Below the pieces are notes generated by a model that saw nothing but the letters and a program-made list of their open reading frames with translations, did no database searches and was not told the DNA's origin. 64,000 nucleotides of DNA from Mesobacterium pallidum. Its GTDB lineage: Bacteria; Pseudomonadota; Alphaproteobacteria; Rhodobacterales; Rhodobacteraceae. Both the position numbers and the translations under genes were made by a program. This document shows, piece by piece, positions 13,451-31,561 of the stretch. The stretch lies in NCBI RefSeq assembly GCF_019966535.1, contig NZ_JAIMID010000002.1, positions 496,001-560,000 of the forward strand, written 5' to 3'. Numbering within the stretch: the first letter of the stretch is position 1; every line of letters begins with the position of its first letter.

Positions 13451-13942
13451 ATGGGCATCGAGGCAACCGGCGGCGAGATCGACATGGGCAAGTTCTGGCG
13501 CACCCTGGGCGAACGCCCGATCGGCGCCACGCTGGTCACCGCGCAGTCGGCAGATGGCCCCACGGGCTTTCTTGGCCTGTCGGCGGCGCATGTGACGGCG
13601 AACCCGCCGACCATGCTGGTGTCGATCGACAAGAAGACCTCGGCCCTGGCCGGGGTGATCGAGAACGGTCATTTCGCGGTCAACTACCTGCCCGAAGGCT
13701 GCGCCGAGATGGCCAATGCTTTCGGCGGCAAGGGCGAAAAGGTCTTCGAGGACGGCGCCTGGGACACGCTCGCCACCGGCGCGCCGGTCTACACCGAGGC
13801 GCTGGGAGTCTTCGATTGCGAGGTCGAGACGGTCGTGGAACACGGTGACATCTCGATCGTGATCGGCACCGTCAAGGGCATCCGCGCAAAGGGCGAAGGC
13901 GCGCCGTTGATCTTCTTCCGCGGGAAATTCCTGAGCGATTGA
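13451..13942 (+). CDS. Flavin reductase, RutF/HpaC-like (copy 1)
   Basis: A 163-aa protein of the flavin-reductase-like FMN-binding split-barrel family. Family members reduce FMN or FAD with NAD(P)H and pass reduced flavin to a partner monooxygenase. Visible blocks include FWRTLGERPIGATLVTAQ, GLSAAHVTANPPTMLVSIDKKT, NGHFAVNYLPE and the C-terminal FFRGKFLSD. The ATG at 13451 is chosen for the GGAAGGA site 10 nt upstream; an upstream extension to 13184 is Arg/Pro-rich non-coding-like sequence. It faces a minus-strand operon with two RutA-like monooxygenases, the natural users of its product. That it supplies them is inferred. Confidence 0.88.
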   Translation: MGIEATGGEIDMGKFWRTLGERPIGATLVTAQSADGPTGFLGLSAAHVTANPPTMLVSIDKKTSALAGVIENGHFAVNYLPEGCAEMANAFGGKGEKVFEDGAWDTLATGAPVYTEALGVFDCEVETVVEHGDISIVIGTVKGIRAKGEGAPLIFFRGKFLSD

Positions 13943-15329: not shown

Positions 15330-16412
15330 TCATTCCGCGGCCAGAGCGACCGTTTCGCGCGATTTCATGCGCGGCTGGATTTCCTTGCCGAAGGCGTCGA
15401 GCCCCTCGAGGAAGTCGTCGAAGACCATCATGATGCCCTTGACGCCCGGCACCGCCGCCGCCTCGTCCAGCATCCGGGCGACGCTTTCGTAGGAGCCGAT
15501 GATCGTGCCCATGTTGAAGTTCACCGCGCCTTCCGGAAGGTTGATCGTCGCCGCGGTCGAGTTCGCGCCCGCTGACTGGTCGGCCGCGCCCTGCACGCCC
15601 ATGTAGGCCAGCGCCTCCATGTCCGCGCCCTCGCGGTAGGCGGTCCACTTGGCCTGCGCTTCCTCGTCCGTCTCGCCCGAGATGACCATGAACAGCACGT
15701 AGGCGCCGACGTCTCGCCCGGTCTTGGCGGCGGCGTCCATCAGGCGTTTCGACGTCGGCTCGAACGACGTGGGCGTGTTGACCCCGGTGCCGAGGACGAA
15801 GGAGTAATTCGCGAGGTTCGCGGCGAATTCCATGCCGGTGTCCGACTGGCCGGCGGCCACGATCTCGATCGGGCTCGACGGCGGCGGCGAGAGCTTGCAG
15901 TCTTCCATGGTGAAGTGCTTGCCCTTGAAGTCCGAGGTGCCGGTGTCCCAGAGCTCTTTCATCACGGTGACGTATTCCGTCGCGTACTCATAGCGATAGC
16001 CGAAATACTCGTCGCCCGGCCAGACCCCCATCTGGGTGTATTCGCCCGGCGCCCAGCCGGTCACGATGTTCACGCCGAAGCGGCCCGGCGCCACGCTGTC
16101 GATGGTCGAGGCCATGCGCGCGACGATCGCCGGCGGCAGGGTCAGGATCGCGGTCGAGGCGAAGAGCTTGATCTTGTCCGTCACCGCGGCCAGCGAGGCC
16201 ATCAGCGTGAAGCTTTCCAGGTTGTGATCCCAGAACTCCGTCTCGCCGCCGAAACCGCGCAGCTTGATCATCGAGAGGGCAAAATCCAGCCCGTAACCCT
16301 CGGCCTTCTGCACGATCTGCTTGTTCAGCTCGAAGCTGGGCATGTATTGCGGCGCGGCTTTCGAGATCAGCCAGCCGTTGTTCCCGATCGGGATGAAGAC
16401 ACCCATATCCAT
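15330..16412 (-). CDS. RutA-like flavin-dependent monooxygenase (LLM class), copy 1
   Basis: A 360-aa luciferase-like monooxygenase very close to E. coli RutA. It shares the start [59 protein letters not shown], GRFGVNxVTGW, AGQSDx[10 protein letters not shown] and the end [12 protein letters not shown]. RutA uses FMNH2 and O2 to form a flavin peroxide that opens the uracil ring between N3 and C4. The ATG at 16412 is preferred because GGGGA lies just upstream; an extension to 16466 lacks family similarity. The motif AAGTCCGTACATGT sits about 30 nt upstream. A paralogue lies at 17448-18548 on the other side of the GntR gene. Uracil itself need not be the substrate. Confidence 0.93.
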
Positions 16413-16439
16413 GTCACGATTCCCCGTTGTAACGTGATT

Positions 16440-16453
16440 ACATGTACGGACTT
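16440..16453 (-). promoter_or_regulatory. Candidate GntR operator, AAGTCCGTACATGT
   Basis: This 14-mer (read on the minus strand) lies 28-41 nt before the RutA-like copy 1 start. The identical 14-mer occurs at 23217-23230 upstream of the LysR gene. AAGTCC half-sites also cluster at the GntR promoter. Its position suits control of the RutA-like gene. Confidence 0.55.
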
Positions 16454-16500
16454 TTGCAGTCGCCATTGAGGGAAGCGAGACATTCCGGTCGCACAGTATG

Positions 16501-16526
16501 CAAAACCCGGCGCACTTCGGGTTTTG
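16501..16526 (-). terminator. Hairpin after the GntR gene
   Basis: Arms CAAAACCCG (16501-16509) and CGGGTTTTG (16518-16526) pair perfectly over 9 bp with an 8-nt loop. The hairpin lies between the GntR stop and the next gene. There is no long T-run after it, so it may attenuate and not fully terminate. Confidence 0.5.
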
Positions 16527-16586
16527 CCCGTTTAATGCGCGCCGCAGCGCGGCATTTGCCCCGCTGGAAGCAGGGCGAAAACGCGG

Positions 16587-17342
16587 TCAGGTCGACTGGA
16601 TTCGGGTCTGGTAGGCAAAGGACTCGGCGGGGTAGAACTGCATGGCGAATTCCTGCATCCGCCCGCCCGAGGCGATGTAACGGCGCGACAGGCGCATGCA
16701 GATGTCGCCCTCTTCCCGCCCCAGCGCGCGGGCCACGTGGGCCGGCATGGGGATGGCCCGGATCTCCTGGTGGATCTCGCGGATGCGTTCGCCGGTCGCC
16801 TTCTCGATCAGCATGAACAGCGCAACACGCAACACGTCGATGCTTTCGATCACCGAGCGCAGGCGCGGTTCGAGGTAAACTTCGTTCCAGCACATGGGCT
16901 TGTCCTCTCCGGCGATGAAACGCAGACCGGCCGCATGGTAGTATTTCCGGCCCGGCCGGCAGCCCATCTGCACGGCCAGCTGTCCCCGCGCCTCGATCAC
17001 CTCGCGGTGGCTGAACCGCAGCTCGGTCTCGCGGGCAAAGTCGAACAGGTCGCCCCGCGTCTCGGTGGTGAAGCGGCCGAACATGTCGTCGCGCGCCTGC
17101 TCAACCCGGGTGCCGACGCCCTTGCGGGCCGACACCCGCCCCCGCGCCCGCATCTGCCCGATGGCCTGCCGGACGGTGTGGCGCGAGACCTTGAGCATGG
17201 CCGAAAGGTCCGCCTCGGTCGGCAAGAGCGACCCGACCGGGAAACGCCCCGCGGAAATCTCTTTTTCAAGAAGGGAGGCAACCTGGAGATACAGGGGGGA
17301 GCCGTCGTCCCGGCTTAGGGAAACATCAGAAAAGTCTTCCAT
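16587..17342 (-). CDS. GntR/HutC-family transcriptional regulator with UTRA effector domain
   Basis: A 251-aa regulator. The N-terminal winged helix-turn-helix (residues ~10-75) has the GntR pattern SPLYLQVASLLEKEI, LPTEADLSAMLKVSRHTVRQAIGQM and RKGVGTRV. The C-terminal ~160 residues have UTRA features: YHAAGLRFIAGEDKPMCWNEVYLEP and EIRAIPMPAHVARALGREEGDICMRLSRRYIASGGRMQEF. UTRA domains bind small effectors such as amino-acid or sugar derivatives. The ATG at 17342 is the first ATG in frame; TTG at 17357 is a possible alternative. The gene lies between the two RutA-like genes and its promoter carries repeated AAGTC half-sites, suggesting autoregulation and control of its neighbours. Confidence 0.9.
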   Translation of the reverse strand: MEDFSDVSLSRDDGSPLYLQVASLLEKEISAGRFPVGSLLPTEADLSAMLKVSRHTVRQAIGQMRARGRVSARKGVGTRVEQARDDMFGRFTTETRGDLFDFARETELRFSHREVIEARGQLAVQMGCRPGRKYYHAAGLRFIAGEDKPMCWNEVYLEPRLRSVIESIDVLRVALFMLIEKATGERIREIHQEIRAIPMPAHVARALGREEGDICMRLSRRYIASGGRMQEFAMQFYPAESFAYQTRIQST

Positions 17343-17355
17343 TATCACGCAATTC

Positions 17356-17376
17356 AAGTCTGGACTTATGCAAGTC
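17356..17376. promoter_or_regulatory. Candidate GntR autoregulatory operator
   Basis: AAGTC (17356-17360), GACTT (17363-17367) and AAGTC (17372-17376) form two overlapping inverted repeats, AAGTC-N2-GACTT and GACTT-N4-AAGTC, just upstream of the GntR start. A further AAGTCC lies at 17400-17405. Confidence 0.5.
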
Positions 17377-17447: not shown

Positions 17448-18548
17448 TCATTCCGCCGCGAGCTTGCCAAGCTCGGGGTTGCGCGACTTCATCAGCGGCT
17501 GGATGTACTGGCCGAACTGCTCGATCCCGATGATGAAATCGTCGAAGGTCAGCATGATGCCCTTGAGGCCCGGCGTCGCGGCGATTTCGTCCAGCATGGC
17601 GGCGACCTGCTCGTAGGACCCGATCAGCTTGAGCATGCCGGTCGGCTGCGGATTCTTGATCGCGCGCACCAGGTTCGCGGCGGTCGAGCCGTCCTTGGCC
17701 ACCTTGTCCTGGCCGGCCTGGGAGGCCTGCCATTCCAGCGCCTCGATGTCGGTGCCCTCCTTGTAGAGGTTCCACTTGTCCCAAGCCATCTGCTCGGTCC
17801 GGTCGGCGATGACCATCAGCAGCAGGAAGGCGCCGGTGTCGCGGCCGTGCTTGTCGGCAAAGCTGTTCACCTTGGCGACCATCTCGCGGCTTTGCTGGGT
17901 TTCGTTGATGTCCCCGCCCGCGCCGACAAAGTTGTAATCGCCGTACTTGGCGACGAATTCCATGCCCTTCTCGGACTGGCCCGCACCGACGATCGGGATG
18001 CGGCCCTTGGCCGGCCCGGGCGAGAGCTTGCAATCGTCCATCTGGAAGAAGTCGCCCTTGAAGTTCGACACGCCGTCGCGCCACAGGTCCTGCATGACCT
18101 GCACGTATTCGGAGGCGTAGTCATAGCGGCGGGCAAAGTGTTCCGGCGTCAGTTCCAGCCCCATCTGCTGGTATTCCTTGGGCTGCCAGCCGGTCACCAT
18201 GTTCACGCCGATCCGGCCGGGGGCGATGGAATCGATGGTCGTGGCCATGCGCGCGGTCAGCGCCGGCGGCAGGGTCAGCATGGCGCAGGAGGCAAACAGC
18301 TTGATCTTCTTGGTGACGGCGGCCAGGCCGGCCATCAGCGTGAAGCTTTCCAGGTTGTGCACCCAGTATTCCGACGGACCGTTGTAGCCGCGCAGCTTGA
18401 TCATCGAGAGGGCGAAATCCAGCCCGTAGCGTTCGGCCTGCTGAACGACGATCTTGTTCAGCTCGAAGCTGGGCATGGTCTTGGGCGAGGTGGTCGAGAT
18501 CAGCCAGCCGCGGCTGCCGATCGGGATGAAGACGCCAATCTCTGTCAT
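17448..18548 (-). CDS. RutA-like flavin-dependent monooxygenase (LLM class), copy 2
   Basis: A 366-aa paralogue of the protein at 15330. It shares [77 protein letters not shown] and FDDFIIGIEQFG. Differences within the RutA core are GSRG for GNNG, YNGPSEYWV for FGGxTEFWD and AGGDINETQQS for [10 protein letters not shown]. These suggest a different substrate, or division of labour between the copies. The ATG at 18548 follows a GGAAAGGA site 7 nt upstream. It sits 55 nt after an MFS transporter gene, probably in one transcript. Reduced flavin would have to come from the RutF-like proteins at 13451 and 30361. Confidence 0.92.
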   Translation of the reverse strand: MTEIGVFIPIGSRGWLISTTSPKTMPSFELNKIVVQQAERYGLDFALSMIKLRGYNGPSEYWVHNLESFTLMAGLAAVTKKIKLFASCAMLTLPPALTARMATTIDSIAPGRIGVNMVTGWQPKEYQQMGLELTPEHFARRYDYASEYVQVMQDLWRDGVSNFKGDFFQMDDCKLSPGPAKGRIPIVGAGQSEKGMEFVAKYGDYNFVGAGGDINETQQSREMVAKVNSFADKHGRDTGAFLLLMVIADRTEQMAWDKWNLYKEGTDIEALEWQASQAGQDKVAKDGSTAANLVRAIKNPQPTGMLKLIGSYEQVAAMLDEIAATPGLKGIMLTFDDFIIGIEQFGQYIQPLMKSRNPELGKLAAE

Positions 18549-18603
18549 GGGTGGTTCCTTTCCTGTTGGTGTCTGGCCCCGGGTGGCGGGGCCGTTACTG
18601 ATG

Positions 18604-20315: not shown

Positions 20316-20382
20316 TAACGGGCCGCGCGGGGCCGGTCCTATGGTCATCTCAACGCTCACGAGGACCAAAAAGGATCGCGCC

Positions 20383-21069
20383 ATGACCCGCGTATGGGAT
20401 GACTTCCTGACCGAAGACGACAAGAAACTTGTGGCCCGCCGCAACCTGCGAGAGCCGCACGGGCCCGGCAAGGTGAACGCGCTGCTGGTGATCGACATGC
20501 AGGTCACCGCCTGCGGCATCGACGCGCCGATCGTTGACCAGCTGGACGAGTACCCCGGCAGCTGCGGCCCCCATGCGTGGAAATCCATCCCCGTGCAGCA
20601 GCGCCTGCTGGCCGCCGCCCGCACCGCCGGGATGCCGGTGATCTATTCCAAGCACATCTTCCACGGCTATACCGGGATGAAGCAATCGGTGGCCGGCGTC
20701 TTTTCCGCCACCGACCCGCGATCCGAGATCCCCGATTACGTGGCGATGGAAAAAGGCGAGATCCTGGTCGAAAAGCAGACCCCGTCCTGTTTCGCCTTCA
20801 CCAACCTGCACCTGATCGCGCAGCAAAAGGGCATCGACGGCTTCCTCGTCGTCGGCAATTCGACCTCGGGCTGCGTGCGCGCCACCTGCGTGGATGGCGA
20901 GGCGATGGGCTACAAGATGCAGGTGATCGAGGAAGGCGTCTTTGACCGGATCGAGATGAGCCATGCCGCCGCGCTCTTCGACATGCAGTTCAAGATCTGC
21001 GACGTGATCGACGAGGCCCGCGCGTTGGAGATCATCGACGCCCCCGCCGCGCTCAAGAAATCCGCCTGA
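20383..21069 (+). CDS. Isochorismatase-fold cysteine hydrolase (RutB / N-carbamoylsarcosine amidase type)
   Basis: A 228-aa hydrolase with the family Asp-Lys-Cys triad: Asp38 in LLVIDMQ, Lys131 in VEKQTPSCFAFTNL and Cys164 in NSTSGCVRATCVDG. The region NSTSGCVRATCVDGEAMGY followed by QVIEEGVFDR matches N-carbamoylsarcosine amidase-like and RutB-like members, which hydrolyse ureido or carbamoyl groups. ATG 20383 has AAGGA 8 nt upstream. It is followed 11 nt later by a nitrilase-type hydrolase and then an MFS gene, a clear operon. In the Rut pathway RutB removes the carbamoyl group after RutA opens the ring; the same order is inferred here. Confidence 0.9.
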   Translation: MTRVWDDFLTEDDKKLVARRNLREPHGPGKVNALLVIDMQVTACGIDAPIVDQLDEYPGSCGPHAWKSIPVQQRLLAAARTAGMPVIYSKHIFHGYTGMKQSVAGVFSATDPRSEIPDYVAMEKGEILVEKQTPSCFAFTNLHLIAQQKGIDGFLVVGNSTSGCVRATCVDGEAMGYKMQVIEEGVFDRIEMSHAAALFDMQFKICDVIDEARALEIIDAPAALKKSA

Positions 21070-21080
21070 AGGGGGCCGCC

Positions 21081-21968
21081 ATGACCGGGTTCACCGCTGC
21101 CGCCATCCAGCTCGGGCCGGCCTCGGCCACGATTGCCGAGACCACCGACCGGATCGAGATGCTCATGAGCCGCGCCGCGGCCCATGGCGCGAAACTGGCC
21201 GTGCTGCCGGAACTGGCCCTGTCGCCCTATTTCGCGGCCGAGATCCAGGACGTCAGCCAATGGGTCGAGCCCGCCGCCAATCTCGACGCGCTCGAGCGGA
21301 TCGCGGCGCGGGCAGCGGACCTGTCGATGGCGGTGGTCGTGTCCTACGCCGAACACGACAGCCGCGGGCTTTACAATTCGATGGCCTTCTACGACGCGCA
21401 GGGCCAGCGCAAGGGGCTGTTCCGCAAGGTCCACATCCCCGGAACGCACAAACCCGATCCGGCCAAGTCGCTGAACATCCTAGAAAAACACTATTTCACT
21501 CCCGGCGACCTGGGCTTTCCCGCGCATGACCTCGGCATGGTGCGCGTGGGCGGCCTCATCTGCTACGACCGCCGCTTTCCCGAAAGCTACCGGTCCCTCA
21601 TGCTGAACGGGGCAGAGCTGTTTTGCTGTGGCTACAACACGCCGGTGCTGGAAGGCACGACGCTGGACGGCGCCCGCCGCGCGTCGGAACTGGCCATCTG
21701 CGGTGGTGCTTATTCCAACGGCACCTGGGCCATCGCCGCCGGCAAGGCAGGGGTCGAGAACGGGCATACCTACATCGGCGGGTCCTTCATCTGCACCCCC
21801 ACCGGCGAGATCGTCGCGCAATGCCAGTCGATGGAGGACGAGGTGATCGTCGCCCACGTGGACATGGGCCTGCAGGCCAGCATCCGGGGCCGCTGGGCCT
21901 TCGACATCAACCGCATGGAAGACGCCTACACCCTCTCTCCGCCGCAACCGCTGAGCGGCGCGGCCTGA
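21081..21968 (+). CDS. Nitrilase-superfamily carbon-nitrogen hydrolase (carbamoyl-amino-acid hydrolase-like)
   Basis: A 295-aa protein with the Glu-Lys-Cys triad: Glu44 in VLPELALSPYF, Lys116 in LFRKVHIPG and Cys161 in GLICYDRRFPES. The superfamily includes N-carbamoyl-D-amino acid hydrolases, beta-ureidopropionase and amidases. ATG 21081 follows AAGGGGG. It lies between the cysteine hydrolase and an MFS gene, with the next start only 5 nt after its stop. A second decarbamoylation or amide hydrolysis after ring opening is the likely job; the substrate is not determinable from sequence. Confidence 0.9.
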   Translation: MTGFTAAAIQLGPASATIAETTDRIEMLMSRAAAHGAKLAVLPELALSPYFAAEIQDVSQWVEPAANLDALERIAARAADLSMAVVVSYAEHDSRGLYNSMAFYDAQGQRKGLFRKVHIPGTHKPDPAKSLNILEKHYFTPGDLGFPAHDLGMVRVGGLICYDRRFPESYRSLMLNGAELFCCGYNTPVLEGTTLDGARRASELAICGGAYSNGTWAIAAGKAGVENGHTYIGGSFICTPTGEIVAQCQSMEDEVIVAHVDMGLQASIRGRWAFDINRMEDAYTLSPPQPLSGAA

Positions 21969-21973
21969 CAGCC

Positions 21974-23218
21974 ATGGGGCTTTTCGCGGGGAACGGCCAG
22001 GCCTCGGCCCTGGCCCATCCGCCCTTTCGCCGGTTCTTCGCCGCCTCGCTGGTGTCGATGCCGGGCAACTGGATGCAGATCACCGCGCAGGCCTGGCTGG
22101 TTCTGACGGTCCATGACAGCCCGATGGCGCTGGCCTGGATGACGACGCTGCAATTCCTGCCGATATTGCTCTTCACCCTGATGGGCGGCGCGCTGGCTGA
22201 CCGGCTGGCGCGGCGGCCGCTGATGATCGCCACCCAACTGGTGGGTGCCGCCCAGACGCTGGCGCTGGCGCTGCTGGTCGCGACGGGCCATTTCGAGCTA
22301 TGGCATTTGTACGGACTTGCGGTGATCCTGGGCTTTGTCAACGCCATCGACGGGCCGCTGCGGCAGGCGATGATCGCCGACCTCGTACCGCGCGAGGCGC
22401 TGGCCCACGGCATGTCGCTGGGGGCGCTGTCGCAAAACGTCGGCCGGGTGATCGGGCCTGGGTTGGCCGGCCTCGTGATCGCCTGGGCCGGGGTGCCCGC
22501 GGCCTTTGCCATCAACTGCGTGACCTACCTGGTCTGCGCCGCCCTGCTGACCACGATCCGCATGCCGGTCATCGCCGTGCCTGCCGGCGCCCGCGTCAGC
22601 CTGGTCCGCGCCACCCGCGACGGTCTGCGCTACGCGATGACCTCGCACCCGGTGCGTTTCGTGCTGGTCGCCACGGCCTTCATCGGGGTCTTCGGACAGA
22701 ACTTCACCACCATGATCCCGCTGGTCGCCACCTACCTGCTCGACGCCTCCCCCGCCGAATTCGGCCTGCTGAACTCGGCCCTGGGTGGCGGCTCGCTCTG
22801 CGCGATTCTGGTGCTCGCACGCAGCGGCGCGCCCACGGTGCGGCGCATCCTGCTGTCGGGCCTCAGCTTTGGCGTGCTGCTGATGATCATCGCTCAAAGC
22901 GGCGAGATGTGGCTGAGCTGCGCGCTTTTCGCCGTGGTCGGCGCCTCGGCGGTGATCTTCTCGACCTCGGTCCAGACGGCGCTGCAACTCGTCGCCCCGC
23001 CCGACCTGCGCGGCCGGGTGGCGGCGATGGTGACGTTCCTCATCGTCGGCACCTCGCCCATCGGCGCGCTGATGACGGGGGGAATCGCGCAGAACGTGTC
23101 CGTCTCGGCCGCCATCGCCACCAACGGGGTGCTCTGCGTCCTGGGAATCGCCATCGCCCTGTGGATCGGCGCGAAACAGGCCGTGATTTTTGAACCAGAG
23201 CGCGTCTCTGCTGAATAA
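21974..23218 (+). CDS. MFS transporter (EntS/TetR_3-like, ~12 TM)
   Basis: A 414-aa transporter that begins PPFRRFFAASLVSMPGNWMQ and has GGALADRLARRPLMI, FVNAIDGPLRQAMIADLVPRE and LSQNVGRVIGPGLAGLVI, all typical of EntS-like exporters of small molecules. The ATG at 21974 lies 5 nt after the nitrilase stop without a strong ribosome site, suggesting translational coupling. It is the last gene of the cysteine hydrolase operon; the next gene, a LysR regulator, follows after 161 nt. Export of a pathway product or toxic intermediate is possible. Confidence 0.87.
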   Translation: MGLFAGNGQASALAHPPFRRFFAASLVSMPGNWMQITAQAWLVLTVHDSPMALAWMTTLQFLPILLFTLMGGALADRLARRPLMIATQLVGAAQTLALALLVATGHFELWHLYGLAVILGFVNAIDGPLRQAMIADLVPREALAHGMSLGALSQNVGRVIGPGLAGLVIAWAGVPAAFAINCVTYLVCAALLTTIRMPVIAVPAGARVSLVRATRDGLRYAMTSHPVRFVLVATAFIGVFGQNFTTMIPLVATYLLDASPAEFGLLNSALGGGSLCAILVLARSGAPTVRRILLSGLSFGVLLMIIAQSGEMWLSCALFAVVGASAVIFSTSVQTALQLVAPPDLRGRVAAMVTFLIVGTSPIGALMTGGIAQNVSVSAAIATNGVLCVLGIAIALWIGAKQAVIFEPERVSAE

Positions 23219-23230: not shown

Positions 23231-23379
23231 TGTGCGCATTCCGCGCCCCCGCTCGCCCAAAAATGCAGCGGGCGTTCAGGTTTTTCCAGTCGTCGCCCAA
23301 AGAACGCGGCACGCCACTTGCGAGGGACCCGCGGCTTGGCTGACATGAGACCCAGAGGGAGACGACATGAGGATTGACC

Positions 23380-24303
23380 ATGCGCAAACGCGTGCCCCTG
23401 AATGCCATTCGCGCCTTCGAAGCCACCGCCCGTAACGCATCCGTCGCCAAGGCCGCCGACGAGCTTTGCGTGACCCCGACCGCCGTCAGCCACCAGATTC
23501 GGCAGCTCGAGGATTTCCTGCAGGTGCAACTGTTCATCCGCAAGAATTCGCGGATCGAGCTGACCACGGACGCCCGCGCCAACGTGGCGCGGATCAGCCA
23601 GGCGCTGGATCTCATCAACGACGCCGTGCTGACGCTGGAAAAGGCCGAAGAGGACGTGCAACGCCGCATGTCCGTCTCGGCCTCGGTCTCGGTCACCTCG
23701 CTCTGGCTGATGCCACGCCTCAGCGATTTCGTGAAGCTTTCACCCAACGTCGACCTGAGCGTGCGCACCTTCCTGACCCGCAAGGAAGCCGAGGCGCAGG
23801 ACAGCGACCTGCGCATCTGCAACTGGCACAGCGACCTCGACTGCCAGATCGAACCGCTGATGGAGGAAGAGATCGTTCCCGTCTGCGCCCCCGCCCTGGC
23901 CGAGCGTTTCGGCGGCGACACGCGCGACATCCTCGCCTCGGCCCCGCTGGTCCACGTGGACCGCGCGCAGGACGCGCTGGACGGCACCTACCCCGACTGG
24001 GCGCGCTACCTGACCGAATACGGCGTCCAGCGCGCCGACCTCAGCCACGGGCTGCGCTTCAACCAGGGCGTCACGGCGATCGAGGCGGCCGAGGCCGGCG
24101 TCGGCGTGATCCTTGGCCGGTCGCTGCTGATCGAACAGTCCCTCGCCCGCGGCACGCTGGTGCAGGTGGCCGAGACCTACCCGATCCGCTCGCCCTATTA
24201 CATGCTCTCGCCCTGGCGGCAGGAGGCCAAGGCGACGATCCAGACCTTCAAGGACTGGCTGGTCGAAAAGGTCCGGACAAACCAGCTGGTCCACGCGGTC
24301 TGA
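23380..24303 (+). CDS. LysR-family regulator, GcvA-like
   Basis: A 307-aa regulator. The N-terminal helix-turn-helix reads LNAIRAFEATARNASVAKAADELCVTPTAVSHQIRQLEDFLQVQLFIR, a GcvA-subgroup pattern. The effector domain (from ~90) includes SVTSLWLMPRLSDF, DLRICNWHSD, CAPALAERFGG and GVTAIEAAEAGVGVILGRSLL. ATG 23380 is preferred with TGAGGA 8 nt upstream; a TTG at 23374 is in frame. It sits inside the catabolic island, and direct repeats of the TTCTCAG type occur upstream of four surrounding units, so it is the best candidate for their regulator. It ends at a strong hairpin terminator. Confidence 0.9.
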   Translation: MRKRVPLNAIRAFEATARNASVAKAADELCVTPTAVSHQIRQLEDFLQVQLFIRKNSRIELTTDARANVARISQALDLINDAVLTLEKAEEDVQRRMSVSASVSVTSLWLMPRLSDFVKLSPNVDLSVRTFLTRKEAEAQDSDLRICNWHSDLDCQIEPLMEEEIVPVCAPALAERFGGDTRDILASAPLVHVDRAQDALDGTYPDWARYLTEYGVQRADLSHGLRFNQGVTAIEAAEAGVGVILGRSLLIEQSLARGTLVQVAETYPIRSPYYMLSPWRQEAKATIQTFKDWLVEKVRTNQLVHAV

Positions 24304-24350: not shown

Positions 24351-24410
24351 CCAATTGACGCGGATCGGGCACCGAGGATGCCTGATCCCACTTCATCTTG
24401 CCCTTAAACT

Positions 24411-24488
24411 CCAGGGGTCGCCATTGTCGCGCCATTGGTCCGAGAGACAATGGCGACGGGCTGGCCCCTGGCGCGCTCAGCCAGGGGC
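24411..24488. other. Structured non-coding element with competing hairpins
   Basis: GTCGCCATTGTC (24417-24428) pairs with GACAATGGCGAC (24446-24457), a perfect 12-bp stem. CCCCTGG (24465-24471) can pair either with CCAGGGG at 24411-24417, enclosing that stem, or with CCAGGGG at 24481-24487 as part of a 9-bp hairpin (24464-24472/24480-24488). The two are mutually exclusive. It lies at the 3' end of the ABC transporter operon. No open reading frame explains it. Confidence 0.6.
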
Positions 24489-24502
24489 GCAACCGCCTGA
24501 AC

Positions 24503-25551
<1,049 letters not shown>

Positions 25552-25555
<4 letters not shown>

Positions 25556-26385
25556 GCGGCGGTCCTCATGGTGCGACGTTTGGCAAGGCGGCTCAGGGCA
25601 AAGATCGTGAGCCCGACAAGCGTGAAGGAGAAAAGCGTGGTGACGGTGCCGATCGCGAACAGCACCGGCGTGGCCGAGGCGGTCAGCAGGCCCGTCACCT
25701 CCATCGGCATGGTGTTCCCGGTGCCGACGTTCAGCTGGGTGCGGGCGGTTTCCTCGTAGGACGAGGTGAGGGAGGCCATCATGATCCCGATGATCCCGGG
25801 CAGGATGATCGGCACGATCACATCCGTGAACCGCTGGCGGGCATTGGCGCCAAGGTCGGTCGCGGCCTCCTCGTAGCTGGGGTTGAAGCGGCCGAGCACG
25901 ATGAACATGATCAGCAGGCCAAAGGGCAGCGTCCAGGTCAGCTGCGCGCCGATGCCGGAGGTGAACCAGTTCACCCGCCAGCCCAGCAGGTTGAAGGTCA
26001 GCGCGATGCCGAAGCCGACGAAGATCCCCGGCAGCACCATCGAGGTGATGGCCGAGTAGAAGACAAAGTTCGACCCCGGGAACTTGCGCCGGTAGGCCAT
26101 GCCGGCCGAGACGGCGATGATCGCCGAGATGACCGCGACGATCAGCGCCAGGCGGATCGAGCGGCGGAAGGACGCGGCGATGTCGCCCATCCCCTGCCCG
26201 CCGGTGCCGCCGAACAGCACCTCGTACCAATGGGTCGACCAGCCGGTCATCGGGAAGGACATGCCCCCGTTCGGGCCCTGGAACGACAGGATGTAGACGC
26301 AGGCCATGGGCGCGTAGAGAAAGACGATGAAGAGCCCCAGCAGCGTGGCGAGAAAGTAGAAGGATCGGGGACGGCGCGCGGTCAT
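25552..26385 (-). CDS. ABC transporter permease, PotC-like
   Basis: A 277-aa inner-membrane permease with about 6 hydrophobic segments and the EAA-type loop YEEAATDLGANARQRFTDVIVPIILPGI that docks the ATPase. ATG 26385 has AAAGGAGC just upstream. Both gene borders are 4-nt ATGA overlaps, so expression with its partners is coupled. Another conserved stretch is SMVLPGIFVGFGIAL. Confidence 0.93.
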
Positions 26386-27254
26386 CGCTGCAGCTCCTTT
26401 CGGATATCGGCAAAGCGCAGCAGCACGCCCACCAGGGCCAGGACGATCACCAGCATCACCACGGACTTCGCGGCGGCCGGCGGGTACATGAAGGCGTTGA
26501 GCTCGGTCACGATGGCCATGGTGGCCGTGTTGACCTGCCCGCCCGACATCTGCTTGACGATGAAGGCGTCGCCCATGACGGCGGTGACGACAAAGATCGT
26601 GCCGATGGCGATGCCCGGCCGGATCAGCGGCAGGATGATGTCGCGGATGATCTGCCATTCCGAGGCGCCGGCATCCTGCGCCGCCTGGATGACCGAGGGC
26701 GGGATCTTGCCCATCGAGTTCACCATGCAGACGATCATCGGCAGGGTCAGCAGGTGGACATAGGCGATGAGCACCGCGAATTCGGAATACATCAGCCAGC
26801 TCAGCGGCTCGGAGGTGATGCCAAGGCCCATCAGCGCCTGGTTCACCAGCCCCTCGCGGCCCAGAAGCGGCACCCAGCTGACCGCGCGGATCGGGCCCGA
26901 GGTCCAGAACGGGATCGCCACCGTCGCCAGCAGCATCAGCCGGACGGTCATGGTGCGCACATGGAAGGCCAGGAAATAGGCGATGCAGAAGCCCAGGAGC
27001 GCGGTCACCGCCCAGACGATGGCCACGAACTTGAAGGTCTTGGCGTAAAGGTCGCGGGTCAGCTGCGAGGTCAGCACATCCTCCCACGAGCCAAGGTAGA
27101 GCTCGGGGAAGACCCGGGCGAAGTCGTAATCGAGGAAGCTGACGACAAAGATCAGGCCCAGGGGCAAGAGGACCATGGTGGTGAAGATCAGCGCCATCGG
27201 CGCGACCTGGATCATCGACACGATCCTGGGGGGTATCGGGTTGGCGAGGCGCAT
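26382..27254 (-). CDS. ABC transporter permease, PotB-like
   Basis: A 290-aa permease with about 6 membrane segments and the EAA-type loop IQAAQDAGASEWQIIRDIILPLIRPGI. Other family blocks are IPFWTSGPIRAVSWVPLLGREGLVNQAL and YVHLLTLPMIVCMVNSMGKIP. ATG 27254 has AAAGGA 6 nt upstream; a longer frame to 27458 is not supported. It follows the binding-protein gene after a 110-nt gap that contains a stable hairpin, and overlaps the next permease by 4 nt. Confidence 0.93.
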   Translation of the reverse strand: MRLANPIPPRIVSMIQVAPMALIFTTMVLLPLGLIFVVSFLDYDFARVFPELYLGSWEDVLTSQLTRDLYAKTFKFVAIVWAVTALLGFCIAYFLAFHVRTMTVRLMLLATVAIPFWTSGPIRAVSWVPLLGREGLVNQALMGLGITSEPLSWLMYSEFAVLIAYVHLLTLPMIVCMVNSMGKIPPSVIQAAQDAGASEWQIIRDIILPLIRPGIAIGTIFVVTAVMGDAFIVKQMSGGQVNTATMAIVTELNAFMYPPAAAKSVVMLVIVLALVGVLLRFADIRKELQR

Positions 27255-27332
27255 GGGGGTCCTTTGGGCTTCGGGCTTGGGGTCCGGAAAGGCCGCGGCG
27301 GCGAGAGGAGCCACCATCGCGACCGGGCAGGC

Positions 27333-27356
27333 CCGGGCAGGGAAACCCCTGCCCGG
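27333..27356 (-). terminator. Intra-operon hairpin after the binding-protein gene
   Basis: CCGGGCAGGG (27333-27342) and CCCTGCCCGG (27347-27356) form a perfect 10-bp GC stem with loop AAAC and no T-run on the minus strand. It lies 8 nt after the binding-protein stop. Such hairpins commonly stabilise binding-protein mRNA and reduce downstream expression. Confidence 0.65.
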
Positions 27357-27364
27357 ACGCTGGA

Positions 27365-28669
27365 TCAAGCGGCGATGAAATCCTGCCAGCGGCGGACGAG
27401 ATAGCGGTCCTCGTCCATTAGGGTGTTCCAGATGCCGATGTTGCCCATCCGGTCCCAAAGAGAGCCGCCGTCGCGCACGACCCCGGCCTTTTCCATGACC
27501 TTGCCGAAGGGGTTCAGGATGTCTTCGGACGCTTCCTTGCCCTCGTACCAGTAGCCGTATTCGTTCTCGGTCATGTAGCCCTTCACGTTGTCGGGGACCG
27601 AGTTGTAGAAGCCCTGGCGCGAGATGAAGGCGCCGGCCCAGCCCGAGTTGTACCAGTTCATGTATTCGATGGCGCAGTCACGCTGCAGGCCCTCGAGGTG
27701 GTTCATGCCCATCATCATGATGTACCAGCCACGGTAGCCTTCCTTCATGCCGTTGTACTTGCACTCGATCCCGCGGGTGCGAACCTCGGTCACGGCGGGC
27801 GACCACATGGATTGCAGCACCACCTCGCCCGACGCCATCAGCTGCACCGACTGGTCGAAGTTGGCCCAGAAGCTGCGGAAATGGCCGTCGCGCTTGTACT
27901 CGATCAGCTTGTCGACGGTGGCGTCGATCTCGTCCCGGGTCATGTTGCCCTTGTCGACGTAGGACACCTCGCCCATCGCCTCGAGCGCCATGGCCGCGTC
28001 CGGCACGCCCACGTTGACGCCGTCCTGCAGCGCCACGCGGCCCGAGAACTCGGGGTTCAGCAGCTCGGCCCAGCTTTCGATCGGGCGGCCGATCAGGTCG
28101 GGGCGGATGCCCAGCGTGTCGGCGTTGTAATAAAGCGGCACGCCCACCAGCCATTCGGTCGGCTCGAGCGAGTATTCGCTGCCGGTCTCGTCAGTGTAAT
28201 ACTGCGCCTTGATCGGGGCATAGCCCTGCAGCGACGCCTTCTCGCCGCTGGCATATTCGCCCTTGGTGAACAGCGGGACGGTCTTGTCCCAGTACTTGTA
28301 GTCGGCCACGTTCAGCGGCATCAGCACGCCCCGGCCCACGAAATACTTCATGTTGGTGTTCGGCACGTCGGTCACGTCGACCGTCTGCGGCTGGGTCAGC
28401 AGGCGGTTGATATGGGCCGTGTTGTCCGGAACCGTCTGCATGTCGACGGTAAACCCGAGGTCGGCATTCGCTTGCTCGGCGATGTTCGGGATCGTCGAAT
28501 ACGACTGCCCGATATGGGTGATCGTGATGTCCTTGATGTTCTGTGCCCAAAGCATGGGCGCCGGAAAGGCCGAGGCGGCTGCCGCCGCGGCCCCGGTCTT
28601 GAGAAGCGAGCGGCGCGAGAGCTTGGTTGCTCCGGCGGCGCTGGTGGTCTTGCGCTTGATATCTTTCAT
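27365..28669 (-). CDS. Tat-exported substrate-binding protein, PotD/PotF-like
   Basis: A 434-aa periplasmic binding protein. The N terminus has a twin-arginine signal, SRRSLLKTGAAAAAASAFPAP (positions 19-39), with probable cleavage near AQN. The mature part resembles polyamine-type binding proteins: PNTNMKYFVGRGVLMPLN, WLVGVPLYYNADTLG, FSGRVALQDGVNVGVPDAAM and AIEYMNWYNSGWAGAFISRQGFY. ATG 28669 follows GGGGGA. It heads the importer operon and faces an amidase gene across a 255-nt divergent promoter with a TCTCA direct repeat. Uptake of the island's substrate or a related amide is inferred. Confidence 0.92.
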   Translation of the reverse strand: MKDIKRKTTSAAGATKLSRRSLLKTGAAAAAASAFPAPMLWAQNIKDITITHIGQSYSTIPNIAEQANADLGFTVDMQTVPDNTAHINRLLTQPQTVDVTDVPNTNMKYFVGRGVLMPLNVADYKYWDKTVPLFTKGEYASGEKASLQGYAPIKAQYYTDETGSEYSLEPTEWLVGVPLYYNADTLGIRPDLIGRPIESWAELLNPEFSGRVALQDGVNVGVPDAAMALEAMGEVSYVDKGNMTRDEIDATVDKLIEYKRDGHFRSFWANFDQSVQLMASGEVVLQSMWSPAVTEVRTRGIECKYNGMKEGYRGWYIMMMGMNHLEGLQRDCAIEYMNWYNSGWAGAFISRQGFYNSVPDNVKGYMTENEYGYWYEGKEASEDILNPFGKVMEKAGVVRDGGSLWDRMGNIGIWNTLMDEDRYLVRRWQDFIAA

Positions 28670-28802
28670 GTTTCCCCCTGCGGAAAGCAGTTCTGTTGTC
28701 CCTTTCGATCGCGGCGCCAGCCCTGGGAGGCAGGCCGGCACCCCGTCGAAATCGCGGTTTTCGGTAGGGAAAGTGTCATCCCGAGGCGGCCGAAACGGCA
28801 AA

Positions 28803-28833
28803 TGAGAAAAAGTTCCCGAGCGGGTGAGGAAAG
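28803..28833 (-). promoter_or_regulatory. Candidate LysR site in the SBP/amidase divergent promoter
   Basis: On the minus strand TCCTCAC and TTCTCAT repeat with a 22-nt period (TGAGGA at 28825 and TGAGAA at 28803 on plus). Spacing equals that of the site at 30256-30285. It lies 134-164 nt before the binding-protein start. Confidence 0.55.
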
Positions 28834-28924
28834 CTGCGCTGCACTGCGGCAAGGCCTGTGCTTATGCTGGTGCAGATGCGGCGGCGCACCCGCCGACAAG
28901 CCCACAAGACCAAGGAGGACCGCG

Positions 28925-30232
28925 ATGTCCGATGCCCCACTCACCCCCGCCGATTGCCTGACGGCCAGCGCCATCGCGGCCGATGTCATGGCCGGCACCC
29001 GCAGCGCACTCGAGGTGGCCGAGGCCTGCCTCGCCATCACCGCGGCGCGCGAGCCCGAAGTGCAGGCGTTCGAGTACCTCGACCCCGCGCTGGTGCGCGC
29101 CCAGGCCCGCGCCGTGGATGCAGCCCCCAAGGGGCCGCTGGCAGGCGTGACGGTGGCCGTCAAGGACGTGATCGCGACCAAGGACATGCCCACGGGGCAG
29201 AATTCGCCGCGCTACGCGGGCTGCCAGACCGGCGTCGACGCGGCCTGCGTGGACACGCTGCGCCAGGCGGGCGCGATCATGCTGGGCAAGGCGGTGACGA
29301 CGGAATTCGCCGCCACCAACCGGGGCGGCAAGACGCGCAACCCGCTTGATCCGCGCCGCACGCCGGGGGGGTCGTCCTCGGGCTCGGCGGCGGCGGTGGC
29401 GGCAGGCATGGCCTCGATCGGGCTCGGCACGCAGACCGGCGGGTCAACCATCCGGCCCGCGTCCTTCAACGGGATCTGGGGGTGGAAACCGACCTGGAAC
29501 ACGATCTCGCGCGAGGGGCTGAAGCTTTATTCGCTGACCTGCGATACGCTGGGGCTTTATGCCCGGGACGTGGCCGATTTCGACCTGCTGGCGGATGTCT
29601 TCGACCTCGACGACGCGCCCCGTCCGGACACGCTGCGCGGCCTGCGAATCGGGCTCTGCCGCACCCCGGTCTGGGACCGGACCGAGCCGTCGATGCGCGA
29701 CGCGATGGAGCAGGCGGCGATGATCCTGCGCGCCGAGGGGGCCGAGGTGATCACGCTCGACCTGCCCGAGATCTTCAACGGCCTCAAGGATGCCCATTCG
29801 GTGATTCTCGGCCGCGAGGGGCGCACGGCCTTCCTGAACGAAGTACGCAACACCCCCGGTATCCACGACGAATTCGTCGCCCTGGCCGAGAATCGGCGCC
29901 AGATCACCCCCGCCGAGGCCCGCGCCGCCTATGGGCTGGCCGATGCCTGCCGCGCGGCGCTGGATGACGTGATGCGCGGGGTCGACGTGATCATGACGCC
30001 CTCGGCCTGCGGCGAGGCGCCGATGGGGCTCGAGTTGACGGGCGATGCCTCGATGAACTCGCTCTGGACGGTGCTGCAGGTGCCGGTCGTCTCGGCCCCG
30101 GGGCTGCTGGGGCCGGCGGGGATGCCGCTGGGGATTTCCTTCGTCACGCGCCGCTACACCGACCGCACCGCGCTGGCCGTGGCCGGCATGGCGGGCGAGG
30201 CATTTTCGCGCCCCCTCGCGGCGGTCGCCTAA
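28925..30232 (+). CDS. Amidase-signature family hydrolase (copy 2)
   Basis: A 435-aa serine amidase with Lys80 (VTVAVKDV), the cis-Ser motif GGSSSG (148-153) and nucleophile Ser174 (TGGSTIRPASF). It is related over its whole length to the amidase at 13993, more closely around the catalytic core. ATG 28925 has AAGGAGG upstream. It starts divergently from the ABC importer and is followed by the flavin reductase/RibB-like pair on the same strand after 128 nt. Likely hydrolysis of an amide taken up by the importer or formed by ring opening. Confidence 0.88.
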   Translation: MSDAPLTPADCLTASAIAADVMAGTRSALEVAEACLAITAAREPEVQAFEYLDPALVRAQARAVDAAPKGPLAGVTVAVKDVIATKDMPTGQNSPRYAGCQTGVDAACVDTLRQAGAIMLGKAVTTEFAATNRGGKTRNPLDPRRTPGGSSSGSAAAVAAGMASIGLGTQTGGSTIRPASFNGIWGWKPTWNTISREGLKLYSLTCDTLGLYARDVADFDLLADVFDLDDAPRPDTLRGLRIGLCRTPVWDRTEPSMRDAMEQAAMILRAEGAEVITLDLPEIFNGLKDAHSVILGREGRTAFLNEVRNTPGIHDEFVALAENRRQITPAEARAAYGLADACRAALDDVMRGVDVIMTPSACGEAPMGLELTGDASMNSLWTVLQVPVVSAPGLLGPAGMPLGISFVTRRYTDRTALAVAGMAGEAFSRPLAAVA

Positions 30233-30360: not shown

Positions 30361-30882
30361 ATGTCTGCCCAGACCCTGACCCCGCCCGAGATCGCCGCCG
30401 ATCTCATCGACCAGGCCAGCTTTCGCGACGGCATGGCGCGGCTGGCCGGCGCCGTGAACATCGTGACCACCGACGGGCCCGGCGGGCGTGCGGGCCTGAC
30501 CGCCTCGGCCGTCTGCTCGGTCACCGACACGCCGCCGACGCTGCTGGTCTGCGTCAACCGCGGCTCGTCGGCCGCGCCCGCCTTCCTGGCCAACGACGCG
30601 ATCTGCATCAACACCGTCGGCCCGGCACATCAGGACCTGGCCATGCTGTTCGGCGGCAAGACCCCGATGGACGACCGTTTCGCCCAGGCCGCCTGGACGC
30701 GCGGCGCCTCGGGCGCGCCGGTGCTGGACGGGGCTGTCGTGTCCTTCGACTGCCGGGTCAGCCTGCGCCAGGTCGTCGGCACGCACGAGGTGATCTTTGC
30801 CGAGGTTCTGGGCGTGCAGACCGCCGAGGACTCCCCGGCCTCGGCCTACTGGGGCCGGAAATTTCACGAGCTGCGGGTGTGA
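30361..30882 (+). CDS. Flavin reductase, RutF-like (copy 2)
   Basis: A 173-aa FMN-binding split-barrel reductase: FRDGMARLAGAVNIVTTDGPGGRAG, LTASAVCSVTDTPPTLLVCVN, ICINTVG and the terminal YWGRKFHEL fit RutF. RutF-type enzymes regenerate reduced FMN for RutA. ATG 30361 follows an AAGGACCAAGG stretch. The next gene, a RibB homologue, starts 3 nt after its stop. With the copy at 13451 the island has two reductases for two RutA-like monooxygenases, but they are not adjacent to them. Confidence 0.9.
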   Translation: MSAQTLTPPEIAADLIDQASFRDGMARLAGAVNIVTTDGPGGRAGLTASAVCSVTDTPPTLLVCVNRGSSAAPAFLANDAICINTVGPAHQDLAMLFGGKTPMDDRFAQAAWTRGASGAPVLDGAVVSFDCRVSLRQVVGTHEVIFAEVLGVQTAEDSPASAYWGRKFHELRV

Positions 30883-30885
30883 GTG

Positions 30886-31479
30886 ATGGGCTTCATGACT
30901 GACGAAATCGACGTGCAACCGCTGGACGCCGCCCTCGCCGCGCTGCAAGCCGGCCGCCCCGTGGTGCTGACCGGCGCCAGCGATGGCGGCCCGGTGATGG
31001 TGATGGCGGCCGGGGCGATCACCGCCGACTGGGTCAATCTGCTGGCCACCCATGCGCGGGGCCTGCTGGGCATGGCGATAACCTTCCAGCACGCGGCCAA
31101 GCTGGGCCTGACGCTGCAACAGCGCCGCAACGTGGCCCGCAAGGTGCCGCTCTATACCCTGTCGATCGAGGCGGCGGCGGGCACCACCACCGGCATCTCT
31201 GCCGCCGAACGGGCGGCCACCATCCTCGCCGCCGCAGCGCCGGATGCGGACGACCGCAGCGTCATCACGCCCGGCCACATCTTCCCGCAGGTGGCCGAAC
31301 CGGGCTCGGCCGGCCAGGCCGAGGGCGCGGTCACGCTGCTGCGCCGCGCCGGGCTGCCGCCGGTGGCCGCGATCTGCTCGATGCTGGACGCGGGTGGCAA
31401 TGATGCCGACCTCGCCTGCGCTCGCGCCAAGGCGGCCGAACTTGGCCTCGTCTGTCTCGATATCAGCGCGCTCGGCTGA
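30886..31479 (+). CDS. Degenerate RibB-like (dihydroxybutanone-phosphate synthase fold) protein
   Basis: A 197-aa protein that aligns with RibB from ALAALQAGRPVVL to the C terminus. Conserved parts are ATHARGL (54-60), TTGISAAERA (101-110), TPGHIFPQ (128-135) and AVTLLRRAGLPPVAAIC. The catalytic DDEDRENEGD loop of true RibB is replaced by TGASDGGPV (29-37), and the GHTEA motif becomes GQAEG (143-147). Magnesium and substrate ligands are therefore missing. Synthesis of the riboflavin precursor is unlikely; a flavin-linked or new hydrolytic/binding role is possible. It is coupled to the flavin reductase (3-nt gap). The ATG at 30895 is an alternative start. A strong terminator follows. Confidence 0.8.
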   Translation: MGFMTDEIDVQPLDAALAALQAGRPVVLTGASDGGPVMVMAAGAITADWVNLLATHARGLLGMAITFQHAAKLGLTLQQRRNVARKVPLYTLSIEAAAGTTTGISAAERAATILAAAAPDADDRSVITPGHIFPQVAEPGSAGQAEGAVTLLRRAGLPPVAAICSMLDAGGNDADLACARAKAAELGLVCLDISALG

Positions 31480-31523: not shown

Positions 31524-31556
31524 AAGCCCCCGCCGGAGACACGCCGGCGGGGGCTT
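31524..31556. terminator. Bidirectional terminator
   Basis: AAGCCCCCGCCGG (31524-31536) and CCGGCGGGGGCTT (31544-31556) form a perfect 13-bp stem with a 7-nt loop, then T. It separates the convergent RibB-like and M20 genes. Confidence 0.85.
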
Positions 31557-31561
31557 TCCGT

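What the first reader, a model, noticed from the sequence alone, without database searches (positions are those of the whole stretch)
30886..31479. RibB-fold protein that has lost its catalytic acid loop, coupled to a RutF-like reductase
TTGISAAER and PGHxFP blocks are kept, but the DDEDRENEGD loop (here TGASDGGPV) and GHTEA (here GQAEG) are not. The gene begins 3 nt after the flavin reductase stop. A repurposed RibB-like protein in a flavin-monooxygenase island has no role that I know of; it could bind flavin precursors, stabilise reduced flavin or catalyse a new step on a ring-opened product.
Basis: partly seen in the sequence, partly recalled or inferred. Interest (0 to 1): 0.65.

Follow-up and report, generated by a model that had tools for sequence, protein, structure and literature searches.

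The report
Catalytically dead RibB coupled to flavin reductase
A protein with the shape of the vitamin-B2 enzyme RibB has lost nearly all of the residues that enzyme needs, yet in ten related clusters it always sits directly behind a flavin reductase in a uracil-type (RutA) oxygenase cluster, so it has probably taken on a new, uncharacterised job next to that reductase.

Summary
Window 30886-31479 encodes a full-length RibB-fold protein (PF00926 E=3.5e-40; AlphaFold2 pLDDT 90.8; closest solved structure RibBX 6mnz, Z 28). It lacks nearly all of the RibB catalytic apparatus. The host has a separate intact RibBA.

They form one clade with the window protein (100/99). The acid-loop residues, Cys67, Arg150, Thr154 and Glu174 are gone in all ten, apart from one retained Asp33; the metal His is gone in nine. 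The dimer-lid loop (TGIS..R) and the PGHxFP histidine are kept, and new invariant residues appear (Q78, P88, Y90, Q135).

In 10/10 loci a RutF-type flavin reductase stops -4 to +27 nt upstream, nearly always beside RutA and amidases. Intact RibB controls lack this neighbour. A second lineage (L096) shows the same flavin reductase-dead RibB overlap near another luciferase-like monooxygenase, while intact ribB paralogs sit in similar islands (Pseudosulfitobacter, Azospirillum).

Most likely it is a former flavin-supply RibB that now serves the reductase without RibB catalysis. A new enzymatic step is the main rival. Function is inferred, not shown.

The parts
30886..31479 (+). Degenerate RibB (DHBP synthase)-like protein, 197 aa; acid loop, Cys, Arg-Gly-His-Thr loop and ICE Glu lost; lid loop TTGISAAER (31186-31212) and PGHIFP kept
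30361..30882 (+). RutF-type NAD(P)H:FMN reductase (Flavin_Reduct), 173 aa, 3 nt upstream of the RibB-like gene; the genome's best RutF match
28925..30232 (+). Amidase-family gene at the head of the same-strand run amidase - reductase - RibB-like; a related amidase precedes the pair in Aquimixticola, Thioclava, G1265, G1302 and G1310
15330..16409 (-). RutA (TIGR03612, 622 bits, over cut-off), FMN-dependent amide-cleaving monooxygenase; 74-84% identical orthologs in the other clusters examined
17448..18551 (-). Second RutA-like monooxygenase (493 bits, just under the RutA cut-off), conserved in Aquimixticola (86%)
13484..13942 (+). Second flavin reductase (HsaB/RutF-like, 152 aa), conserved in most of the clusters (76-85%)
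16587..17357 (-). GntR-family regulator, conserved beside RutA
   Evidence: named from the annotated Thioclava orthologs
23374..24303 (+). LysR-family regulator, conserved beside the pair in several clusters
31525..31561 (+). Strong GC-rich hairpin between the convergent RibB-like and M20 peptidase genes, likely bidirectional terminator ending the operon
   Evidence: -32.9 kcal/mol, z -4.5; not picked up by the consensus scan

Best explanation
The protein descends from a RibB paralog of the kind that sits in flavin-monooxygenase islands, presumably to raise FMN supply. It has lost DHBP synthase chemistry and now works without it as a dedicated partner of the RutF-type flavin reductase encoded 3 nt upstream. 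Shown: RibB fold, loss of the metal, phosphate and acid residues, one clade, purifying selection in close pairs, fixed coupling to the reductase. Inferred: it forms the RibB-type dimer, keeps a remodelled pocket (lid loop, His131, Tyr90, Gln135), binds a flavin or flavin-like or ring-opened ligand there, and helps the reductase load or hand over reduced FMN to RutA.
For: E. coli positions D33, R37, E38, E40, D42, C67, R150, H153, T154, E174 are intact in all 14 canonical homologs aligned. In the ten family members they are lost at nearly every position; the two exceptions are one Asp at 33 (G1302) and one His at 153 (G1310). Mutation of the V. cholerae equivalents of E38, E40 and H153 abolishes activity, and loop-4 (T108-D114) lids the partner monomer's site (PMC5228156). 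R37/R150/T154/H136/D42/E38/H153 equivalents contact ligand or metal (PMC12268802). Kept: T(S)GIS...R and PGHxFP; new invariants G62, A70, Q78, P88, Y90, Q135, A145; Y90 corresponds to the ligand-contacting Y92/F position of PMC12268802. Flavin reductase directly upstream in 10/10 loci, gap -4 to +27 nt, but not within 2 kb of 14 intact RibB control loci. Independent degenerate RibBX in L096 with the same 4-nt overlap to a flavin reductase, plus LLM monooxygenase and amidase. Intact ribB paralogs in LLM/reductase islands. Own intact RibBA elsewhere in the genome.
Against: No direct evidence of binding between the two proteins: the read-through fusion fold gave pTM 0.51, i.e. no confident interface. 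Operon partners need not touch each other. A related RutA-reductase cluster in Rhizobium has no RibB-like protein. The protein evolves faster than its reductase (Thioclava pair 5 nonsynonymous codons against 0; dN/dS generally higher). A conserved histidine and a remodelled pocket could equally mean a new enzymatic activity.
Confidence: 0.42

Rival explanations
1. It is an enzyme with a new reaction, acting on the ring-opened product of the RutA-type oxygenase (a ureidoacrylate- or peracid-like amide) or another pathway intermediate, using the retained PGH histidine and a remodelled metal-free pocket.
For: Invariant His131 and lid loop plus new invariant polar residues Q78, Y90, Q135; the cluster has several amidase, isochorismatase and nitrilase-type hydrolases and no RutC/D/E-type genes were recognised beside it, so pathway steps are unassigned.
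Against: All metal, phosphate and acid residues lost, and the GQAEG motif itself is not conserved; the tight coupling is to the reductase rather than to any hydrolase; downstream hydrolases differ between clusters (asparaginase, Asp/Glu racemase, M20) while the RibB-like protein is constant.
Confidence: 0.3
2. It is a ligand-sensing or regulatory subunit (for example controlling reductase activity in response to pathway substrate) rather than a flavin carrier.
For: Loss of catalysis with a retained pocket half-site is typical of sensor pseudoenzymes (inference); reductase coupling.
Against: No direct evidence; the clusters already carry GntR and LysR regulators.
Confidence: 0.13
3. It still makes DHBP (or does so weakly) and simply boosts flavin supply, like the intact ribB paralogs in similar islands or LuxH.
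For: Homology, and island context of intact paralogs.
Against: Residues proven essential in V. cholerae RibB are absent; an intact RibBA exists.
Confidence: 0.03
4. A decaying remnant without function.
For: Faster evolution than its neighbours; 7 synonymous to 5 nonsynonymous codon changes in the Thioclava pair.
Against: Ten intact ORFs at deep divergence with invariant motifs, dN/dS 0.22-0.37 in the closer pairs, preserved coupling in ten loci.
Confidence: 0.05

Closest known systems
RibB / DHBP synthase (PF00926, TIGR00506; E. coli 1g57, V. cholerae 4p8e)
   Same: Whole fold (Z 26-28), loop-4 lid motif TTGIS.A.(D/E)R, PGHxFP
   Different: Lacks D33, R37, E38, E40, D42, C67, R150, H153, T154, E174 equivalents; below all ribB equivalog cut-offs
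RibBX (A. baumannii 6mnz) and island ribB paralogs
   Same: Best structural match (Z 28.2, 35% identity); similar island context with LLM monooxygenase and flavin reductase
   Different: Single domain, no RibX/RibA-like C-terminal half; catalytic residues lost, whereas the island paralogs keep all of them
Rut pyrimidine pathway (RutA-G)
   Same: RutA over cut-off and a RutF-type reductase
   Different: No RutC/D/E recognised beside it; a RibB-like protein is not part of the known operon (PMC7662398)
LuxH (RibB in Vibrio lux operons; own knowledge)
   Same: RibB homolog placed next to a flavin-dependent monooxygenase system
   Different: LuxH is a working DHBP synthase supplying flavin; by its residues this one cannot be

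Membership tests
DHBP synthase (RibB, EC 4.1.99.12) | RibB fold | tested here: met
   AlphaFold2 pLDDT 90.8, pTM 0.87; VIA Z 26-28 to RibB structures
DHBP synthase (RibB, EC 4.1.99.12) | Metal ligands E38 and H153 | tested here: not met
   E38 absent in 10/10 members, H153 absent in 9/10 (Q in the window)
DHBP synthase (RibB, EC 4.1.99.12) | Phosphate ligands R37, R150, T154 | tested here: not met
   R37 deleted, R150 deleted or substituted, T154 is Ala in 10/10
DHBP synthase (RibB, EC 4.1.99.12) | Acid residues D33, E40, E174 | tested here: not met
   G/G/S in the window; E40 and E174 lost in 10/10, D33 in 9/10
DHBP synthase (RibB, EC 4.1.99.12) | Curated equivalog score | tested here: not met
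   TIGR00506 101.3 bits, cut-off 177.45
DHBP synthase (RibB, EC 4.1.99.12) | Enzyme activity / ribB complementation | not testable with these tools
   Needs experiment
RutF-coupled RibB-like family proposed here | Immediately downstream of a RutF-type reductase | tested here: met
   10/10 loci, gap -4 to +27 nt; 0 of 14 intact RibB control loci have one within 2 kb
RutF-coupled RibB-like family proposed here | Single clade apart from intact RibB | tested here: met
   Support 100/99, 99/96 with fewer rows
RutF (TIGR03615) for the partner | Equivalog cut-off 254.75 bits | tested here: not met
   224 bits, best family match; called RutF-type, not RutF
Physical complex of reductase and RibB-like protein | Confident predicted interface | tested here: inconclusive
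   Read-through fusion model pTM 0.51; no multimer tool available

The most novel reading that the evidence does not exclude
RibB proteins have been turned, at least twice independently (this clade and L096), from flavin-supply enzymes of monooxygenase islands into non-catalytic partners of flavin reductases. That would mean RibB-fold proteins have a second, non-biosynthetic role in delivering or protecting reduced flavin for luciferase-like monooxygenases.
Probability: 0.35. Interest if true: 0.78.

Novelty: new variant of a known kind. Interest (0 to 1): 0.62.

Why it matters
These proteins are annotated as DHBP synthase (e.g. in both Thioclava plasmids), which by their residues is very likely wrong. 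A conserved dead RibB locked to a flavin reductase makes a testable case for how two-component flavin monooxygenases obtain reduced FMN, or exposes an unknown step in RutA-type amide degradation. It also gives a set of natural 'before and after' cases (intact against degenerate RibB in similar islands).

Tried and rejected
A single-protein scan of the genome collection found nothing; an alignment with the universal TGISA stretch removed found Aquimixticola, a MAG and Marinibacterium. Low-scoring RibB hits in relatives were checked as possible further degenerate members; most proved to be intact RibB/RibBA, useful as controls, and one (L112) was a third degenerate type. Literature searches for a RibB-flavin reductase pairing, for catalytically inactive RibB and for RutA-amidase clusters gave nothing that describes this; the library holds open-licence papers only. 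A read-through fusion fold to look for an interface was inconclusive. The consensus terminator scan missed the hairpin that folding found. The YrdC/HypF/GdmN matches (Z 7-8) reflect the shared YrdC/RibB fold and were not taken as function.

Full report
OBSERVATION. The reading frame 30886-31479 (+) is real and exactly as described. It matches Pfam DHBP_synthase over its length (138 bits, E=3.5e-40) but falls below every ribB equivalog cut-off. Against E. coli RibB (alignment) the acid loop DDEDRENEGD is replaced by a shortened TGASD-GG segment, four residues are missing before the GHTEA site, and GHTEA reads GQAEG. The flavin reductase stop (TGA 30880-30882) is 3 nt before ATG 30886. A strong hairpin (31525-31561, -32.9 kcal/mol, z -4.5) lies between this gene and the convergent M20 gene, so the RibB-like gene is probably the last gene of an amidase - reductase - RibB-like run.

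THE HOST. The genome carries a separate canonical RibBA (286 bits) with all catalytic residues, so the window protein is not needed for riboflavin synthesis. Clear RutA matches occur only here, in two copies (624 and 493 bits), and the reductase next to the RibB-like gene is the best RutF match in the genome (224 bits).

FAMILY. By profile searches of whole genomes and of the named genome collection I found nine more members: Aquimixticola soesokkakensis (62% identity), Marinibacterium profundimaris, a Rhodobacteraceae MAG, two Thioclava plasmids (annotated as DHBP synthase), and four unnamed same-family genomes. It is rare: 4 of 394 genomes of the family and 5 of 390 of the order had a match at the cut-off, and one match in each search is a different, RibBX-type degenerate protein (L037, L092). 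The members form one clade separate from intact RibB (99/96 with 6 members, 100/99 with 9).

WHAT IS LOST AND KEPT. In E. coli numbering R37, E38, E40, D42, C67, T154 and E174 are lost in all ten members. R150 is deleted or substituted in all. D33 is lost in nine (one Asp in G1302) and H153 in nine (one His in G1310). All are present in the 14 canonical sequences aligned. Published work makes several of these essential or ligand-binding: alanine mutants of V. cholerae E39, E41 and H154 lose activity (PMC5228156), and the fungal enzyme's R34, R147, H150, T151, H133, D39 and E35 contact inhibitor or metal (PMC12268802). Kept are the loop-4 lid T(S)GIS..(D/E)R, which covers the partner monomer's site in RibB, and PGHxFP with its histidine. 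New invariants of the family are G62, A70, Q78, P88, Y90, Q135 and A145. Y90 falls at the ligand-contacting aromatic position of the RibB pocket (Y92 in the fungal enzyme). AlphaFold2 predicts a complete ordered RibB fold (pLDDT 90.8, pTM 0.87), nearest to RibBX 6mnz (Z 28.2, 1.7 A over 185 residues).

SELECTION. Closer pairs have dN/dS 0.22-0.37 and all ten frames are open. Deep pairs (0.4-0.8) are near saturation and should not be over-read. The RibB-like gene is less constrained than its reductase: the two Thioclava strains differ by 7 synonymous and 5 nonsynonymous codons in it, against 7 and 0 in the reductase.

COUPLING. In 10 of 10 loci a RutF-type reductase (55-90% identical among the six members compared) ends between 4 nt inside and 27 nt before the RibB-like start. 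Fourteen loci with intact RibB from relatives had no flavin reductase within 2 kb by the same BLAST test; one had one about 2.1 kb away on the other strand. RutA orthologs (74-84%) were found in the clusters of Aquimixticola, Thioclava, G295, the MAG, Marinibacterium, G1265 and G1310; in G1302 the fetched stretch ended before that position. GntR, LysR, the second reductase and amidases recur, while the gene after the pair varies (asparaginase, Asp/Glu racemase, M20). RutA clusters in Palleronia, Rhizobium rhododendri and Novosphingobium resinovorum lack the RibB-like gene, so it is an addition, not a core Rut part.

A WIDER PATTERN. L096, another genome of the family, has a different degenerate two-domain RibBX (acid loop LDDLSEQPRAHL, GHTEA to ERSEA) overlapping by 4 nt a flavin reductase only 31% identical to the window's, with an amidase and an LLM monooxygenase nearby. 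It does not group with the window clade. Two further degenerate RibBX (L037, L112) lack an adjacent reductase. On plasmids, intact ribB paralogs sit in similar islands: Pseudosulfitobacter LLM - flavin reductase - ribB with a 4-nt overlap, Azospirillum LLM ... ribB - flavin reductase, and two Novosphingobium islands with LLM genes (residues intact). The simplest reading is that ribB was recruited to such islands to raise flavin supply and then, at least twice, lost its chemistry while staying locked to the reductase.

MECHANISM. I favour a non-catalytic partner of the reductase that binds flavin (or a product) in a remodelled dimer pocket and helps deliver reduced FMN to RutA (0.42). A new enzyme acting on a ring-opened product is the main rival (0.30). 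Binding, dimerisation and flavin contact are inference; the only complex test I could run, a read-through fusion model, showed no confident interface.

NOVELTY. The Thioclava members are annotated as DHBP synthase, and no description of such a pairing was found in the searchable literature. I file it as a new variant of a known kind: RibB superfamily by fold, not a DHBP synthase by residue tests.

Noticed in passing
L096:9229-10862 and 15925-17220 (G1257): Independent degenerate RibBX overlapping a flavin reductase by 4 nt, with amidase and luciferase-like monooxygenase nearby.
   Followed up: partly
L112:9101-10282 (G825) and L037:784-1938 (G194): Two more degenerate RibBX proteins (acid loop lost) in other clusters, one beside Rieske and OYE-like genes, one after a thiolase; no flavin reductase adjacent.
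   Followed up: partly
L116, L117, L118, L120 (plasmids): Intact ribB paralogs inside catabolic islands with luciferase-like monooxygenase genes (and, in L116 and L120, a flavin reductase), probably flavin supply.
   Followed up: partly
window 15330-16409 and 17448-18551 (-): Two RutA-type monooxygenases (58% identical) in one cluster, both conserved in Aquimixticola; the second sits just under the RutA cut-off and may have another substrate.
   Followed up: partly
window 20341-23218 and 24398-28852: Conserved with Aquimixticola: isochorismatase-type hydrolase, carbon-nitrogen hydrolase, transporter and a polyamine-type ABC transporter; suggests a cyclic-amide catabolic island whose substrate is unknown.
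   Followed up: no
L067 9966-10466 and L068 7984-8469: Related flavin reductases sit in ring-hydroxylating dioxygenase clusters of Gemmobacter and Thioclava without any RibB-like gene.
   Followed up: no
window 31525-31561: Very stable hairpin between convergent genes, likely bidirectional terminator.
   Followed up: yes
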